Part shown: positions 2,404-16,338 of the stretch, piece after piece
Layout: each line of letters starts with the position of its first letter
Numbering within the stretch: the first letter of the stretch is position 1
From: a virus
Reading direction: 5' to 3' (one strand)
IMG/VR virus record: IMGVR_UViG_3300021406_000007
Coordinates: 1 to 39,972 of that record
DNA: 39,972 nucleotides
The notes under the pieces: generated by a model
The model's input: the letters and a program-made list of their open reading frames with translations, nothing else
Database searches by the model: none
What the model was told of the DNA's origin: nothing
Translations under genes and position numbers: made by a program

Positions 2404-3688
2404 CGGCACAAAGCGTGCTGTATGGACAGTTCATCGTAGAGGGGGGAAAGACGTTACCGCATTCAATTGGGCAATATTCCAATTAATGTTAAATCCAGGA
2501 TGGACTGCCTTTCACATTCTGCCAACATACTCACAAGCTAAAAAAGTTATCTGGGACTCTTCTACAAATGACGGTCAGCGCATTCTTGATTATATTCCTA
2601 AAGAATGCATCGAATCCAAAAACGGCCACGAAATGAAAATAAGGTTAACTAATGGTAGCTTATATCAGCTTATTGGTTCTGATAATATCGATAGTCTCGT
2701 TGGTAGCAATCCCAAAATTATCATTTTTTCAGAATATGCTATCCAATCTCCTGCTGCGTGGGATTATTTGCGTCCTATTCTTGATGTCAATCGCGGTTAC
2801 GCTATTTTTATTAGTACTCCACGCGGTAAAAATCATTTTTATGATTTAATGACAATGGCTAAGCGTTCGCCTGGTTGGTTCTGCGAAGTATTGCCTATTA
2901 GCGCAACTGGCGTTCTAAATGAAGATGACATCCAAAAGATGCGCGACGAAGGGGTATCAGAAGAACATATTCAGCAAGAATTTTATTGTAGCTTTAATCG
3001 AGGTGTAGAAGGATCATATTATGGACGACTTATCGAAAGAGCGCGATCTGATTCAAGAATTTGTAACGTCCCATATGAAACAAGATCACCTGTACATACA
3101 GCATGGGATATTGGATATGGAGACTCTACGTCAATTACTTTTTGGCAAGAAATTGGCGGAGAGCTTAGAATCATTGACTTCTATGAAGCCCAAGGAGAAG
3201 GAATAGCGCATTATGCAAAGCTTATACAAAGCAAACCCTATGTATACGGCACTCATTATATGCCTCATGATGCCGGATCTGGTTCTATTCAAACTGGGCG
3301 TACATTACAAGACGTTGCGTATGAGCAGGGAATTAAGACAACTATTTTGGAAAGAGAAACTGACGTCTCGGTGGGTATTGAAGCCACAAGATCTATGCTT
3401 AGCACCGTATTTATCGACGAAAAAAAATGTAGCCATTTAATCAAATGTCTGGAAAACTATCACAAAAAATATAACGAAAAACTAAATGTATATTCCGAAA
3501 ATCCCGTCCATGATATGTGGTCGCATGGGGCCGATAGTGTCCGTTACATGGCAAACGCTCGTATTCAATATGGACGTGGTCCAGGCTCTATGTCACCTGA
3601 AAAATTAATGCAACTAAAATCACAAGCTGGTTACGGTCCAAAAACATCACCTCAAAAAGGTATTCAAAAACAATTTTTTGGAAGATAA
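2333..3688 (+). CDS. terL: Terminase large subunit
   Basis: The motor-nuclease that packages DNA into the prohead, 451 residues. The ATPase half shows a Walker A-like HRRGGKD (34-40), Walker B IIIFSEYA (129-136, acidic E134) and STPRGKNHF (161-169). The nuclease half shows WDIGYGDS (258-265), MPHDAG (310-315) and a late HDMWSHGADSVRY motif (about 412-424), matching the acidic metal-binding positions of the RNase H-like terminase nuclease. Start ATG 2333 has AAAGGA just upstream and overlaps terS. The sequence is intact, without intron or frameshift. An HNH endonuclease gene follows directly, a frequent place for homing genes. Confidence 0.95.
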   Translation: MALQVELTFQPRPYQIPIIKALNSGTKRAVWTVHRRGGKDVTAFNWAIFQLMLNPGWTAFHILPTYSQAKKVIWDSSTNDGQRILDYIPKECIESKNGHEMKIRLTNGSLYQLIGSDNIDSLVGSNPKIIIFSEYAIQSPAAWDYLRPILDVNRGYAIFISTPRGKNHFYDLMTMAKRSPGWFCEVLPISATGVLNEDDIQKMRDEGVSEEHIQQEFYCSFNRGVEGSYYGRLIERARSDSRICNVPYETRSPVHTAWDIGYGDSTSITFWQEIGGELRIIDFYEAQGEGIAHYAKLIQSKPYVYGTHYMPHDAGSGSIQTGRTLQDVAYEQGIKTTILERETDVSVGIEATRSMLSTVFIDEKKCSHLIKCLENYHKKYNEKLNVYSENPVHDMWSHGADSVRYMANARIQYGRGPGSMSPEKLMQLKSQAGYGPKTSPQKGIQKQFFGR

Positions 3689-3742
3689 TAGTTGTAGATT
3701 TACGTTTATGTATGTTATTATATCCCTAATCACGAGGATATG

Positions 3743-4384
3743 ATGAAAATTTGTTGTGAATGTGGTATAGAATTTCATGAGAAAAAATCTTATCAAAAGT
3801 TTTGTGGAAAGAAATGTTGTGCTAGGTTTCATTCTATAAATCAAGATAAGGAAGTAAAAATAGGAACACATCAAAGAATAAAAGAATGTTCCTATTGTAA
3901 AAAATCATTTAACATAGATCGCAGAAGAAAATTTTGTTCATTTCAATGTAAAACAAAAGGAACAAATCAAAGAATTTTACATGAAAGATCTATTAATCCT
4001 GACAGAAGAAAAATTCTAGATGAAATTTGTATTAAGGAACGTAAGAGAAAAGGTATAGATTTAACAAAACCTATTCGTAATCCGAATCCTAAAGGTTCTG
4101 GACATATTAATAAAAGGGGATATAAGATCATCAAGCGACATGGGCATCCAAATGCGCATGTAAAAGGTTCTATAGGTGAACATATATGGGTTATGAGTGA
4201 ATTTTTAGGACGCGCATTGTTTGAAAAGGAAAATGTTCATCATATTAATGGCATTCGACATGATAATCGCATAGAAAATCTCGAATTATGGACTACTCAT
4301 CAACCTTCTGGGCAATGCGTAGAAGATAAAATAAATTGGTGCAAAGAATTTCTTACACAATATGGATACAAAATAGATAAATGA
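3743..4384 (+). CDS. Free-standing HNH homing endonuclease with two zinc fingers
   Basis: A site-specific DNase of the HNH_3 type, 213 residues from ATG 3743; the ATG at 3740 is too close to the GAGG site at 3734. Two treble-clef-like zinc modules come first (C4/C7, C21, C25 and C49, C52, C65, C69). A basic linker (NPNPKGSGHINKRGYK) leads to the catalytic HNH: VHHINGIRHDNRIENLELW, with H166, H167, N175, N179 and H186. It lies between terL and a small coupled ORF (ATGA overlap at 4381). It is not inside an intron here. It could act as a selfish homing gene, or serve in trans the endonuclease-less introns of the capsid gene; that link is inference. Confidence 0.9.
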   Translation: MKICCECGIEFHEKKSYQKFCGKKCCARFHSINQDKEVKIGTHQRIKECSYCKKSFNIDRRRKFCSFQCKTKGTNQRILHERSINPDRRKILDEICIKERKRKGIDLTKPIRNPNPKGSGHINKRGYKIIKRHGHPNAHVKGSIGEHIWVMSEFLGRALFEKENVHHINGIRHDNRIENLELWTTHQPSGQCVEDKINWCKEFLTQYGYKIDK

Positions 4385-4524
4385 ACATCTCAAAAGATCT
4401 GCTGCATGAAATCCAATCGTACTATATAATCTACAAAACTCTGTCGATCCCTTTCATGATGCGGAAGTGGAAACTAAGCTGGCAGATTGCAAGTGAGATT
4501 GCTAAATACTTAAAGATTAATTAA
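4381..4524 (+). CDS. Small basic protein coupled to HNH gene
   Basis: Forty-seven residues, MNISKDLLHEIQSYYIIYKT to YLKIN. Its ATG overlaps the stop of the HNH gene (ATGA), a common coupling. It contains a basic aromatic stretch (MMRKWKLSWQ). No family recognised; it ends just before the structured RNA region. Confidence 0.5.
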   Translation: MNISKDLLHEIQSYYIIYKTLSIPFMMRKWKLSWQIASEIAKYLKIN

Positions 4525-4530
4525 ATTTTT

Positions 4531-4642
4531 ATTTAACTGGGAAGGTTTTAAGTGCTTGCTCCTTTAAAAGCATTCCCGTGCTAATGGATTTAAATCCTAT
4601 GCCGCTGAGTATAATTACGGGTATCATTAGCCCCAGTTAAAT
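4531..4642 (+). ncRNA. Candidate structured RNA (multibranched, 112 nt)
   Basis: A perfect 11-bp outer stem joins 4531-4541 to 4632-4642. Inside are a stem of 4546-4551 with 4564-4569, a perfect 6-bp stem of 4581-4586 with 4625-4630, a self-complementary 12-mer GGATTTAAATCC at 4586-4597, and a short CCG/CGG helix near 4602 and 4618. The whole element sits in a coding gap directly before the methyltransferase start at 4656. I do not recognise it as a named riboswitch, hammerhead or twister ribozyme. It could be a cis-acting leader or an independent small RNA. Confidence 0.55.
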
Positions 4643-4655
4643 ATTTGAAGGTAAA

Positions 4656-5201
4656 ATGAAAGTCTTAATTGGATGCGAATTTTCTGGAATAGTTCGAGAG
4701 GCTTTCAAATATAGAGGCCATGATGCTTGGTCATGCGATTTATTACCAACTGAGATTCCAGGCCAGCATTTACAATGCGATTTGCTTGATATTTTAAATG
4801 ATAATTGGGATTTGGCTATATTTCATCCTCCATGTACTCATTTAGCTGTAAGCGGTTCTAGATGGTTTATAAATAAAGCTAAAGAACAACAAGAAGCTCT
4901 AGGATTTGTTAAATTACTCATGGATTGTAATATCCCAAAAATAGCTCTAGAAAATCCAGTAAGCATTATAAGTACTCGAATTCGTAAACCCGACCAAATT
5001 ATTCATCCGTGGATGTTTGGACATGGAGAAACTAAGAAAACATGTTTATGGTTGAAAGATTTGCCATTATTGCATCCTGAGAATATTGTTGAAGAAAGAG
5101 AGAATATCATTCATAGAATGCCTCCAAGTCCTGATAGATGGAAGAATAGATCAAGGACATATTTAGGAATCGCAGAAGCGATGGCGAATCAATGGGGATA
5201 A
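4656..5201 (+). CDS. DNA cytosine methyltransferase-like protein
   Basis: A 181-residue protein with a Rossmann-type start (MKVLIGCEFSGIVREAF, S-adenosylmethionine site), a FHPPCTHLAVSG motif (PPC at 58-60, the usual Cys nucleophile position of C5-cytosine methylases), an ENP motif (99-101), and a conserved tail HPWMFGHGETKKTCLWLK. This short form lacks a separate target-recognition domain and is common in phages, annotated as DNA (cytosine) methyltransferase. It may protect phage DNA from host restriction. GAAGG precedes ATG 4656. The next gene overlaps its last ten bases. Confidence 0.8.
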   Translation: MKVLIGCEFSGIVREAFKYRGHDAWSCDLLPTEIPGQHLQCDLLDILNDNWDLAIFHPPCTHLAVSGSRWFINKAKEQQEALGFVKLLMDCNIPKIALENPVSIISTRIRKPDQIIHPWMFGHGETKKTCLWLKDLPLLHPENIVEERENIIHRMPPSPDRWKNRSRTYLGIAEAMANQWG

Positions 5202-12024: not shown

Positions 12025-14100
12025 ATGTCCGGCCCGACAACCACAAGCATTTTGCCTCCAGCTGTACAACAGCAATTGAGCATGAAATTGCTTGCACGTC
12101 CTATGCCAGACTTGATTCATACTACAATGGGTTGATTTTGTCTTGGGTAGCCCATTTAAAACCTTTGGTAATTGACTTGAAAGCCCGACAGGGTAACAAG
12201 GGGCAAGAAATATGTGGTCACTCGATGAATTAAAAGACATGAAATGTAAAATATTAATGGAACATATAGAAGGTGATCCCAATTTTCAGCCTGAGAGACT
12301 TAACCCAAAGGATATTAACAATCAAGTGGATGCTTTCTATCATGCACAAAAAATGATAGATGAAGATATCCGACAGAAGATTGATAATATATGCGAAAGT
12401 CCGATCCCTGAGAATAAATAAAGTCAGGGAGAGGGGAATAACAAGACCCTCCGCCTAGTTGTAAGCAATGTAGCACGATGTAACTAGGTCATAAAAGTAA
12501 CAGGTGATGTACCCCATCACAATGGATCAACAAGCTGGCGATATTCTGAGACGACGACGTTATCAGAACTTGCTAACCGCTCCAGTGCCTTTAGGCAATG
12601 GAATTGTAGACCCCCCAGCGCAGCAACTTACTGCCTTGGATATTGATGCCCGCATAGATTGGTTCCAAGACCGTGCCAATCTTCTTGCAGCGTAAGTGAC
12701 TGACGGTACTTACATTATTCTGCAAGAGCAGGTTTTCTTAGTATGGCCTGCTATAAATCCGCTCTGATTGACTTAGACTGCCGATGGGCAAATAAGGGGC
12801 AAGCAATGAATGAAACTATTATGAAATACTTTGAAATGAAACTTTTATGGGATTCACGAAGAATCATGAAAGGTAATAAAATAGTTGATATTTATATGCA
12901 GCCTGACAGACTAAGGCGAGTGGACACTAGAAATAGTGAAGCGATAGTCGGATCTGCAAATATAGATGAAATTGCAGAGCTTAACAGAAATGATTAAGCC
13001 TCACAAGTAATTGTGAAGTAACAAATTGCATGTTAATAAACGAAGATCCCGTGCTCAATTCGGCGGTATCGACTTTAGGCCAGTCTCTTCGTGAAACCGA
13101 AGACCAATTGGCTCGTAGCATGATGGAAGGGGGTAAAATGTGTGCTCCCTATAAATCTTCTCTGATTGACTTGGAGTTCCTAATCGCTGCATAATGCAGA
13201 GAAAGGATAACAAGGGGCAAGCTATGGATTGGGTATGTGCAAAATGTGGAACTAAAGAATTAATTGGTGGAGAATTTGTTTGTGGAAAAGAAAAAATATT
13301 TGATGCCATTTGCAAAGCATGCTTAATACAAATGCGGCCTGAACGACTAAGTGAGAAGAATCCAAAAGAATATTGTGGTGAACTTCCAGATTACCCTAGA
13401 AGTTTGAAAAGCACTCAATATCCTAATGGGTAAGCGATAGTCTGAACTCTATGGTAACATAGAGAGGGAGATTCGAAGAAATTTCCCCGCCATAAATATG
13501 GTCAGTAGGTTTGAGAACCGAAAGTAACAGAAATTGGCACCTCCGGTTAATTGTACAAATGGTACAAACGGGGACAACCCCACGAATATTTCGCCTTTGG
13601 ATTGCTCTAAAGCGGTTCGATTACTAAGAACTGCTAATGCGCAATTCATCATGGACTTGATTGAAGGCGAAGATAAATTCGGTACAGCTCCCGTTCGTAC
13701 CTGCTTCTTTGGATTAACTCACACTAATTTAAGTGCTGACTTAGACCAAATGGTAGGTTTCCAGAACGTAGCGCAGTACAGCAATACAGCTAATTTGCTG
13801 CAATCCGAGTGGGGAACAGTTAGGAACATTAGGTTCTTGCTTTCTTCAGTTGGTAGTATTACGCCTGCTGCTTCTGCCAATGGTCAGGACGTATATAACA
13901 TATTCCTACCAGGGCAAGAAAGCTATGACATGGTTGACCTTGATGGATATTCAGCGCAGTTTATTTATGCACCGCCTGAAATCGCATCGCCACGTCTACG
14001 CCTTTACCAAACAGCCGGTTGGAAGATGGCGCAAGTATTCAACATCACTAACACATCTTGGATCGTCAACTTACGTTGCACGCTTCAAGTAGCACTATAG
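12025..14100 (+). CDS. Major capsid protein gene, four exons split by three group I introns
   Basis: N4-gp56-family major capsid protein, the shell subunit. Exons are 12025-12132, 12510-12733, 13029-13134 and 13537-14100, joined in frame. The joined protein reads MSGPTTTSILPPAVQQQ at the start, ...LIHTTMG|YPITMDQQAG... at junction 1, ...ILQEQ|VMLINEDP... at junction 2 and ...MMEGG|APPVNCTNG... at junction 3, ending in VNLRCTLQVAL. The LGQSLRETEDQL and FQNVAQYSNTANLLQSEWG regions are characteristic of this family. Total is 1,002 nt (333 codons plus stop), but exon 2 holds an in-frame TAA at 12693-12695 inside an apparent 39-nt insertion between WF and GTY; without the insertion the product is 320 residues. 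Exon borders were deduced from P1/P10 pairing and reading frame, not from RNA data. Confidence 0.85.
12133..12509 (+). ncRNA. Group I intron 1 of major capsid gene
   Basis: 377 nt. P1: exon end AATGGGT (12126-12132) pairs with GCCCATT just downstream (12150-12156), with the required U.G pair at the splice site. P10: exon 2 start TACCC pairs with GGGTA directly 5' of that guide. Core: TTGACTTGAAAG, AACAAGGGGCAAG, then R (GACTT at 12297-12301) pairing with S (AAGTC at 12397-12401) as P7. A perfect 7-bp CCTAGTT/AACTAGG stem lies in the 3' domain. The intron ends in G 12509. An ORF is inserted between core halves. Confidence 0.88.
12212..12421 (+). CDS. Intron 1 ORF
   Basis: Sixty-nine residues, MWSLDELKDMKCKILMEHIE to PENK, starting just after the core motif AAGGGGCAAG, which doubles as ribosome site (8 bases upstream). 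It reads through the R element, encoding QPERL, and ends just past S. No HNH, GIY-YIG or LAGLIDADG motif is visible, so it is not an ordinary homing endonuclease. Confidence 0.5.
   Translation: MWSLDELKDMKCKILMEHIEGDPNFQPERLNPKDINNQVDAFYHAQKMIDEDIRQKIDNICESPIPENK
12510..12733 (+). CDS. Major capsid protein, exon 2 (with internal stop)
   Basis: Encodes YPITMDQQAGDILRRRRYQN through DIDARIDWF, then an insertion QDRANLLAA-stop-VTD, then GTYIILQEQ. Both flanks are in the same frame and match the capsid family, so the TAA at 12693 interrupts a real coding exon. Confidence 0.8.
12672..12704 (+). other. Candidate translational bypass gap in capsid exon 2
   Basis: Codon GAC (12669-12671) before the region equals codon GAC (12702-12704) at its end, giving matched take-off and landing codons. 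The 30 bases between them contain TAA. CGTGC (12672-12676) can pair with GCAGCG (12687-12692) with one bulged base, a hairpin directly after the take-off codon. Hopping 33 nt would give WFQD-GTY. The alternatives are stop read-through, a lethal mutation or an assembly fault. Confidence 0.35.
12734..13028 (+). ncRNA. Group I intron 2 of major capsid gene
   Basis: 295 nt, the shortest of the three. P1: exon end AGCAGGT (12727-12733) with GCCTGCT, keeping the U.G pair. P10: exon 3 start CATG with TATG 5' of the guide. Core: GATTGACTTAGAC and AAATAAGGGGCAAG; P7 from GACTA (12909-12913) and TAGTC (12945-12949). Stems TCTGCAA/TTGCAGA and TCACAA/TTGTGA follow. The intron ends in G 13028 and the split codon GT|C restores the frame. 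Confidence 0.88.
12806..12997 (+). CDS. Intron 2 ORF
   Basis: Start ATG 12806 follows AAGGGGCAAGCA, the intron core acting as ribosome site. Sixty-three residues, MNETIMKYFEMKLLWDSRRI to NRND, with MQPDRLRR where the frame crosses the R element. The frame extends upstream to 12743 but that part covers guide and P3 sequence. No endonuclease motif. Confidence 0.45.
   Translation: MNETIMKYFEMKLLWDSRRIMKGNKIVDIYMQPDRLRRVDTRNSEAIVGSANIDEIAELNRND
13135..13536 (+). ncRNA. Group I intron 3 of major capsid gene
   Basis: 402 nt. P1: exon end AGGGGGT (13128-13134) with GCTCCCT. P10: exon 4 start GCAC with GTGT. Core: GATTGACTTGGAG, AACAAGGGGCAAG; P7 from GACTA (13345-13349) and TAGTC (13438-13442), followed by the stem CTCTATG/CATAGAG. 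Ends in G 13536. Shares long stretches with intron 2 (CTATAAATC..CTCTGATTGACTT), so 2 and 3 are close relatives. Confidence 0.88.
13224..13433 (+). CDS. Intron 3 ORF with zinc-finger-like cysteines
   Basis: Sixty-nine residues from ATG 13224, again directly after AAGGGGCAAGCT. WVCAKCGTKE and FVCGKEKIFDAICKACLIQ give a plausible four-Cys zinc site (C5, C8, C20 and C30/C33). It then crosses the R element as MRPERLSE. No catalytic motif of known homing endonucleases is seen. Confidence 0.5.
   Translation: MDWVCAKCGTKELIGGEFVCGKEKIFDAICKACLIQMRPERLSEKNPKEYCGELPDYPRSLKSTQYPNG
13537..14100 (+). CDS. Major capsid protein, exon 4 (C-terminal 187 residues)
   Basis: The largest exon, encoding APPVNCTNGTNGDN through NLRCTLQVAL. 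It has the gp56-family features AVRLLRTANAQFIMDL, TCFFGLTHTNLSADLDQM and SEWGTVRNIRFLLSS, and the conserved C-terminal PRLRLYQTAGWKMAQVFN. It has no start codon of its own, as expected for an exon. Confidence 0.88.
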   Translation, partial: APPVNCTNGTNGDNPTNISPLDCSKAVRLLRTANAQFIMDLIEGEDKFGTAPVRTCFFGLTHTNLSADLDQMVGFQNVAQYSNTANLLQSEWGTVRNIRFLLSSVGSITPAASANGQDVYNIFLPGQESYDMVDLDGYSAQFIYAPPEIASPRLRLYQTAGWKMAQVFNITNTSWIVNLRCTLQVAL

Positions 14101-15891: not shown

Positions 15892-15895
15892 CCAT

Positions 15896-15967
15896 CTCCT
15901 GAAGAGGGATTCGAACCCCCGACCAATTCGTTAACAGCGAACTGCTCTACCACTGAGCTATTCAGGA
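15896..15967 (-). tRNA. tRNA-Asn (anticodon GTT)
   Basis: Read on the minus strand: a perfect 7-bp acceptor stem TCCTGAA/TTCAGGA, D arm GCTC/GAGC, an anticodon arm with loop CTGTTAA giving anticodon GTT, and a T arm closing TTCGAAT. Discriminator is G and no CCA is encoded. The 5' end overlaps the 3' end of the minus-strand gene at 15958 by 10 bases, so processing is needed to release one from the other. It would support the Asn-rich structural proteins. Confidence 0.95.
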
Positions 15968-16338
15968 ATAATATTTACCTTATATTCTGAATATACATTC
16001 AGAGATATTTGACGACTCGATGTAATAACGTGTGAGGGTATAAAATACATATCTATTTCTGAAGTTACTATAAATATGTAATCACAGGTATTAGCATCAA
16101 ATTTCTTTAATTTTGAATTTGGTTGATTACCTCCAGAAGTACGTATGCATGCTGAAAAAACACCATATTTAGATTTATATGAACAAGATATAACTTTTAC
16201 TTTTAATAAAATCCCTGATGGCTCTTCAAAAATTAAATTATATTCACAAGGTTCCAAAGGTATACTAACCATTCCCCTTAAAGAGAAATAAGAAATTGCG
16301 ATGCCAACTGCGCCTTTACCTTTAATTCTATTATTCAT
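15958..16338 (-). CDS. Degenerate PD-(D/E)XK homing-endonuclease-like protein
   Basis: 126 residues resembling the PDDEXK_5 / I-Ssp6803I type: KGKGAVGIAISYFSLRGMVS, SIPLEPCEYNLIF, then a beta strand (LLKVKVISCS), ACIRTSGGN and DYIFIVTSEIDMYFIP, in family order. The catalytic Asp of YDL is replaced by Asn34, and the family's xVK catalytic Lys appears to be Ile50, so cleavage activity is doubtful. Its stop (TAG) lies inside the tRNA 5' end, and both would be on one transcript. It may be a decaying homing gene that once targeted the tRNA or the nearby capsid gene. Confidence 0.7.
   Translation of the reverse strand: MNNRIKGKGAVGIAISYFSLRGMVSIPLEPCEYNLIFEEPSGILLKVKVISCSYKSKYGVFSACIRTSGGNQPNSKLKKFDANTCDYIFIVTSEIDMYFIPSHVITSSRQISLNVYSEYKVNIIPE

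What the first reader, a model, noticed from the sequence alone, without database searches (positions are those of the whole stretch)
12025..14100. Major capsid gene interrupted by three group I introns
The capsid coding sequence is readable only after removing 12133-12509, 12734-13028 and 13135-13536. Every junction restores the reading frame, each 5' exon ends in U paired to G in P1, each intron ends in G, and P10 pairing is present in all three. Group I introns in phages are usually in polymerase, nrd, td or terminase genes; three in one capsid gene of a podovirus is unusual.
Basis: partly seen in the sequence, partly recalled or inferred. Interest (0 to 1): 0.9.

Follow-up and report, generated by a model that had tools for sequence, protein, structure and literature searches.

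The report
Core-less intron served by neighbouring intron
A phage capsid gene carries three self-splicing introns plus an overlooked 39-base "satellite" intron with no catalytic part of its own, which comparative evidence says is cut out by the intron next door; several of these introns also spell out a protein-destruction tag on any capsid fragment made before splicing.

Summary
The three large introns are real and correctly placed: an unguided spliced alignment to intron-free relatives gives the same coordinates, and a group I core model hits all three (95, 67, 40 bits). But removing them does not open the frame. This insert has a group I P1 (GAUUGGU/GCCAAUC, U.G at the 5' site), a P10, a terminal G, and a long helix with the next 31-nt exon, but no catalytic core. 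In 66 relatives the insert and the 12734-13028 intron are both present (21) or both absent (45); on the capsid tree the pair changes at least 12 times. P10 and the exon helix covary. A clade with ~54% identical capsids has the same pair 5 nt away with new covarying helices. The same ribozyme body sits alone at the insert's site in one relative. Best reading: a dependent group I-like mini-intron excised by its neighbour's core. Separately, exon frames running into these introns end ...AA* in 54/58 cases (other frames 1/116), like the ssrA degradation tag. No RNA data exist here; splicing and degradation are inferred.

The parts
12025..12132 (+). MCP exon 1 (codons 1-36)
12133..12509 (+). group I intron at MCP site 36.0 (377 nt); core model hit 12169-12430, 67 bits; read-through stops at once (GGT TGA)
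12510..12663 (+). MCP exon 2
12664..12702 (+). 39-nt core-less mini-intron (satellite insert) at site 87.1; in-frame TAA at 12693-12695; read-through ends ...ANLLAA*
12657..12663 (+). P1a 5' strand (exon GAUUGGU, U at the 5' splice site)
   Evidence: paired in all 20 distinct rows, invariant; fold
12675..12681 (+). P1a 3' strand (GCCAAUC) in the mini-intron
12671..12674 (+). P10a: CCGU in the mini-intron pairs with exon ACGG 12703-12706; CCAU/AUGG in 8 relatives
12683..12697 (+). helix H 5' strands (UCUUGCAG 12683-12690, GUAAGU 12692-12697)
12703..12733 (+). 31-nt mini-exon; holds helix H 3' strands (ACUUAC 12708-12713, CUGCAAGA 12720-12727) and P1b 5' strand (AGCAGGU 12727-12733)
12734..13028 (+). 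group I intron at site 97.2 (295 nt), proposed to supply the core for both excisions; core model hit 12765-12978, 95 bits; IGS GCCUGCU 12746-12752; small ORF in P6 loop
13029..13134 (+). MCP exon 4
13135..13536 (+). group I intron at site 133.0 (402 nt); core model hit 13163-13465, 40 bits; read-through from exon ends ...DLEFLIAA* (TAA 13192-13194)
13537..14100 (+). MCP exon 5 with stop

Best explanation
The major capsid gene carries three ordinary group I introns and one dependent mini-intron. The mini-intron (12664-12702) brings only the substrate parts of a group I intron: its own P1, its own P10 and a terminal G. It has no catalytic core. It pairs with the exon just upstream of the next intron (helix H), which lays the P1a-H-P1b hairpins end to end in front of the core of the 12734-13028 intron. 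That core would first dock P1a and, with a free guanosine, cut out the 39 nt and join exon 2 to the mini-exon. It would then dock P1b and excise itself. The likely origin is an intron that once sat at 87.1 (as in L043) and moved 31 nt downstream, leaving its splice-site cassette. In addition, the exon frame runs into most of these introns and ends in ssrA-like ...LAA/IAA/MAA, so capsid fragments made from unspliced RNA would be fed to ClpXP. Shown: boundaries, covarying pairing, co-occurrence, lack of a core, tag statistics. Inferred: splicing itself, use of the neighbour's core, order of events, origin, proteolysis.
For: Removal of the 39 nt restores the Tyr codon and the match to intron-free relatives; T before it, G at its end. 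Across 66 capsid genes insert and 97.2 intron are both present (21) or both absent (45), never apart. Tree from downstream exon DNA only: pair scattered, 16 changes, at least 12 forced by well-supported branches. Lengths 36-51 nt, 5 of 21 not a multiple of 3, all with an in-frame stop, so it cannot be translated through. P1a pairs 100%; P10a is G-C in 12 rows and A-U in 8; H keeps pairing through mostly synonymous exon changes: 98.4% of cells paired, 28 double-changed cells against 7.2 in shuffles and at most 4 when slid; swapping inserts among loci, p=5e-5 per helix. Exon codons are frozen where P1a/P1b need them (GAT 21/21 v 20/44; GAGCAGGT 21/21 v 9/44). Second clade (~54% identity): 29-40 nt inserts 5 nt away, new P1 (UACGGU/GCCGUA), new P10, new H of 8-11 bp, best of 720 permutations; in five an intron is resolved 26 nt downstream and the sixth (L278) shows the same junction sequence there. 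The autonomous 87.1 intron of L043, with the same P1a, is 86% identical over 619 nt to 97.2 introns, so this ribozyme type sits at both sites. Window RNA folds into P1a-H-P1b, z=-2.7. Tags: 54/58 AA*, 58/58 A*, other frames 1/116 AA*, 19 codon combinations; the unrelated P22-type coat gene of MW202674.1 ends its exon frame in AYFLLAA*.
Against: No transcript or in vitro splicing data. The large intron could move with the 31-nt-distant insert simply by homing co-conversion, which would explain co-occurrence without functional dependence of the intron on the insert. A core acting on a 3' splice site that lies upstream of it is known to me only from engineered ribozymes. P1a itself never varies, so within the first clade it is supported by exon codon freezing rather than covariation. 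Tag evidence: 36.0 and 97.2 introns lack it, second-clade mini-introns lack it, and in that clade several introns end otherwise (AFS, AYS, GIC). Many loci are related, so counts are not independent.
Confidence: 0.78

Rival explanations
1. Ribosomes hop over the 39 nt (translational bypassing, as in T4 gene 60), so the insert is never removed from the RNA.
For: Short insert with a stop codon and strong mRNA hairpins, lengths independent of frame.
Against: No matching take-off and landing codons: the codon before is TGG and nothing equivalent precedes the resume point, which falls inside a Tyr codon. P10-type covariation between insert and first exon bases, the U.G at the 5' end, the terminal G and the strict partner intron are unexplained.
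Confidence: 0.06
2. The mini-insert is excised by a ribozyme acting in trans (the freed 97.2 intron, or one of the other introns) rather than by the 97.2 core in cis before its own excision.
For: Helix H uses only mini-exon bases that survive 97.2 splicing, and engineered group I ribozymes remove 64-100 nt introns in trans (PMC4094466).
Against: The insert occurs without the 36.0 and 133.0 introns but never without 97.2; H ends at P1b of the downstream intron, which favours a cis arrangement.
Confidence: 0.12
3. The insert is a dead scar or a regulator of 97.2 splicing that merely travels with it by co-conversion; genes carrying it make no capsid protein, or use another route.
For: Only 31 nt separate the two, well within homing co-conversion tracts; deletion derivatives of a group I intron exist in Streptococcus thermophilus phages (reference list of PMC11878797).
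Against: A scar would decay: here P1, P10 and H are kept by compensating changes in two clades, and the surrounding capsid frame stays conserved. Without removal the major capsid protein could not be made.
Confidence: 0.05
4. The ...AA* ends are a by-product of RNA structure in the introns, not a degradation tag.
For: In the window mini-intron CUUGCAG..GUAAG is also the H 5' strand, so LAA* could follow from pairing.
Against: Where H changed (L002, L021, L030, L031, L062) LAA*/QAA* is written anew in the P1 loop with other codons; the tag lies in different loops in different introns, in all three phases, only in the exon frame, and appears in an unrelated coat gene.
Confidence: 0.15

Closest known systems
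Phage group I introns in capsid or other virion genes (mycobacteriophage LittleE MCP, lactococcal phage Tuc2009; PMC3706429)
   Same: U at the end of exon 1, G at the intron end, group I type, in the capsid gene, some with LAGLIDADG endonucleases.
   Different: No core-less partner described; no tag-like read-through peptide reported.
Phage Twort gene with three group I introns and exon skipping (Landthaler & Shub 1999, title cited in PMC11878797)
   Same: Several group I introns in one phage gene.
   Different: As I recall, each intron has its own core. Here skipping the 31-nt mini-exon would break the frame.
Engineered trans-excision splicing and 'spliceozymes' (PMC4094466, PMC6155759)
   Same: A group I core removes a short internal RNA that lacks a core.
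   Different: Man-made and in trans; here natural, conserved and apparently in cis.
Group III introns of Euglena plastids (own knowledge)
   Same: Shrunken introns that lost the core of their parent class and depend on help.
   Different: Group II-derived, lariat chemistry; here group I-like, with a definite partner.
ssrA (tmRNA) degradation tag, ...YALAA (own knowledge)
   Same: C-terminal LAA; L008 intron 78.1 gives EHYALAA, ctn9Y15 gives AYFLLAA.
   Different: Encoded in introns and added by read-through, not by tmRNA on stalled ribosomes.

Membership tests
group I intron (three large inserts) | conserved core P3-P9 with P7 guanosine site | tested here: met
   covariation in seven relatives, 27 pairs with double changes; model hits 95, 67, 40 bits in the window, no other hits
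group I intron (three large inserts) | U.G P1 at the 5' site, terminal G, P10 | tested here: met
   and sequence
group I intron (three large inserts) | curated Rfam RF00028 threshold | tested here: not met
   25.3 bits against 50 for 133.0, nothing for the other two; a database cut-off rather than a biological definition
group I intron (three large inserts) | self-splicing | not testable with these tools
   needs RNA
group I intron (39-nt insert) | P1 with U.G, P10, terminal G | tested here: met
group I intron (39-nt insert) | own catalytic core | tested here: not met
   39 nt, no core model hit; so it works like a group I intron but is not filed as one
translational bypassing element (T4 gene 60 type) | matched take-off and landing codons | tested here: not met
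   sequence comparison of 21 inserts
ssrA-type ClpXP degron | C-terminal ...LAA-like residues in the translated frame | tested here: met
   54/58 AA*, 58/58 A*, against 1/116 AA* in other frames
ssrA-type ClpXP degron | drives degradation | not testable with these tools
   needs protein turnover assay
N4-gp56-like major capsid protein | homology to annotated major capsid proteins | tested here: met
   phrog_1357 1e-24; relative annotated as N4-gp56 family MCP in OR779980.1; Pfam Phage_capsid_4 below cut-off

The most novel reading that the evidence does not exclude
A natural class of core-less, dependent group I-like introns, each excised by the ribozyme of a neighbouring intron to which it is tethered by an insert-exon helix, present in at least two clades of phage capsid genes; combined with introns that encode degradation tags for the products of unspliced capsid mRNA.
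Probability: 0.68. Interest if true: 0.95.

Novelty: categorically new. Interest (0 to 1): 0.9.

Why it matters
If true, one group I ribozyme naturally removes two introns, one of which carries no catalyst. That is the step from self-splicing to splicing served by a separate catalyst, which is usually discussed for group II introns and the spliceosome and, as far as I could find, has been built with group I ribozymes only in the laboratory. It is small enough to reconstitute in a test tube. The tag finding gives a reason why introns can persist in a highly expressed virion gene: failures of splicing would be sent for destruction instead of poisoning capsid assembly. It also warns that capsid genes split by such elements are annotated as fragments.

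Tried and rejected
Rfam scan alone (would have called two introns negative). In-frame insertion: 5 of 21 inserts break the frame and all carry a stop. Exon skipping 87.1 to 97.2: the mini-exon is 31 nt, so skipping breaks the frame, and the mini-exon is conserved as protein. Translational bypass: no matched codons. Idea that the mini-insert exists only to supply the degradation tag: rejected, because second-clade mini-inserts lack it. Host identification: a scan of genome contigs of 84,980 species found no relative. Other introns of this family in the window: none by the core model. Random GATTGGT pattern hits in unrelated contigs were set aside.

Full report
Check of the observation. The window is a 39,972-base virus record with a P22-like portal (PF16510, 3e-60), so a podovirus-like phage is reasonable. 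The region 12025-14100 encodes a major capsid protein (phrog_1357, 1e-24). I found 80 loci with relatives of its C-terminal exon in IMG/VR; several are intron-free and give a 320-aa protein.

The large introns. Rfam's group I model stays below its cut-off. An alignment of seven short relatives supports P3, P4, P5, P6, P7, P8, P9, P9.1 and P9.2, with 27 pairs showing changes on both sides (P3 and P8 are the weakest, about 66% of cells paired). A covariance model of P4-P9 hits the window three times, at the three introns and nowhere else; in 78 related loci it gives 75 hits, which as far as I compared coordinates fall in the capsid gene. Across relatives introns occupy about eleven sites in this one gene; longer ones carry LAGLIDADG endonucleases.

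The fourth insert. Its 5' neighbour is U, it ends in G, and removing it restores Tyr (TAC) as in relatives. Of 66 distinct capsid genes read across the site, 21 have both the insert and the 97.2 intron, 44 have neither, and one (L043) has a full intron at the insert's site and none at 97.2 (Fisher p = 1e-17, which ignores relatedness). On a tree built from exon DNA far downstream, the pair is scattered: 16 changes, at least 12 forced by well-supported branches. So the two have come and gone together many times and were never seen apart.

Its anatomy. P1a is exon GAUUGGU with insert GCCAAUC. P10a is insert CCRU (UCGU in one) with exon AYGG, with R and Y matching in every case. Helix H pairs insert UCUUGCAG and GUAAGU with CUGCAAGA and ACUUAC of the 31-nt mini-exon. 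On 20 distinct sequences 98.4% of cells pair, 8 pairs have double changes, with 28 such cells against 7.2 in shuffles and at most 4 when slid. The variable P1 loop was left out of that alignment. Exchanging inserts between loci breaks each helix (p = 5e-5 each). The exon changes that drive this are mostly synonymous, and one is Tyr to Phe (L062). The exon codon GAT is frozen in insert carriers (21/21 against 20/44), as is GAGCAGGT, the P1b strand (21/21 against 9/44). The window RNA folds into three hairpins in a row, P1a, H and P1b. There is no room for a core in 36-51 nt.

Independent cases. In a capsid clade about 54% identical to ours, six loci have inserts of 29-40 nt placed 5 nt further on, with a different P1 (UACGGU/GCCGUA), a different P10 (ACGU:ACGU or AGGU:ACCU, one locus imperfect) and different H helices of 8-11 bp. 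The true pairing of inserts and mini-exons scores best of 720 permutations. Five have a resolved intron 26 nt downstream; the sixth (L278) aligned poorly but has the same AACGAGCAGGT junction followed by intron-like sequence. A further relative (L286) has a 33-nt insert with P1 GCUGCAU/GUGCAGC and P10 GAUU:AAUC; its insert segment GCUUGGC matches GCCAAGC directly before P1b of the next intron, 91 nt on (one example, so suggestive only).

Who does the catalysis. The autonomous 87.1 intron of L043 uses the same P1a and is 86% identical over 619 nt, all but P1 and the 3' end, to the 97.2 intron of L018. So this ribozyme type sits alone at 87.1 in one phage and, in others, 31 nt downstream of the insert. 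All mini-introns of the window's clade end in UG, as do all 97.2 introns, though UG is common elsewhere too. The simplest account is that the 97.2 core processes both sites. Cis action before self-excision is my preferred order, because H abuts P1b; trans action is not excluded.

Read-through peptides. Translating each exon into its intron to the first stop gives ...AA* in 54 of 58 introns at sites other than 36.0 and 97.2, and ...A* in all 58; the other two frames give AA* 0/58 and 1/58 (one doubtful alignment, L017, was left out). Nineteen codon combinations are used, and the tag sits in different loops. The window has ANLLAA* (mini-intron) and DLEFLIAA* (133.0). L008 has EHYALAA*. The 36.0 introns mostly stop at once after 36 residues, and the 97.2 introns mostly have no such tag but lie behind a mini-intron that does. 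A named, unrelated podovirus (MW202674.1, P22-type coat protein) has the same intron family, and its truncated coat CDS ends AYFLLAA*. In more distant capsid clades the ending is commoner than not but less strict. Literature searches found no report of intron-encoded degradation tags or of natural core-less group I introns; the library holds open-licence papers only, so absence there is weak evidence.

Limits. Everything is comparative. Some rows are near-copies (for example L034/L035, L045/L058, L070/L071). The spliced alignment gave a small bonus to T/G boundaries, but the insert boundaries are also fixed by the Tyr codon. Whether the RNA is spliced, by which core, and whether the fragments are degraded need the experiments listed.

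Noticed in passing
window 13192-13194 and 12693-12695; 58 introns in relatives: Exon frames running into capsid introns end in ssrA-like ...AA* (54/58), in several codon spellings and intron positions.
   Followed up: yes
L240 (MW202674.1) 3547-5062: P22-type coat protein of podovirus ctn9Y15 is split by an intron of the same family but annotated as two coat proteins; the first ends AYFLLAA*.
   Followed up: partly
L043 3672-4360: Autonomous intron at the mini-intron's site with a LAGLIDADG gene nearly the same as in 97.2 introns, suggesting the intron body shifted 31 nt while keeping its endonuclease.
   Followed up: partly
L286 (reverse strand) 3945-3977: Possible further core-less mini-intron at another site, paired with an intron 91 nt downstream; read-through ends CLAA*.
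   Followed up: partly
window 13194-13433: Small ORF in intron 133.0 with zinc-ribbon-like CxxC pairs; no Pfam match. Similar short ORFs of unknown role lie in the other two introns.
   Followed up: no
window 3740-4384: HNH endonuclease gene (PF13392, 4e-9) between terminase and portal regions.
   Followed up: no
window 15895-15968: tRNA-Asn (GTT) gene on the minus strand.
   Followed up: no
L020 and L025: Capsid genes with mini-intron, a minimal 198-200 nt 97.2 intron and a third intron only ~20 nt further on (105.0 or 104.0).
   Followed up: no
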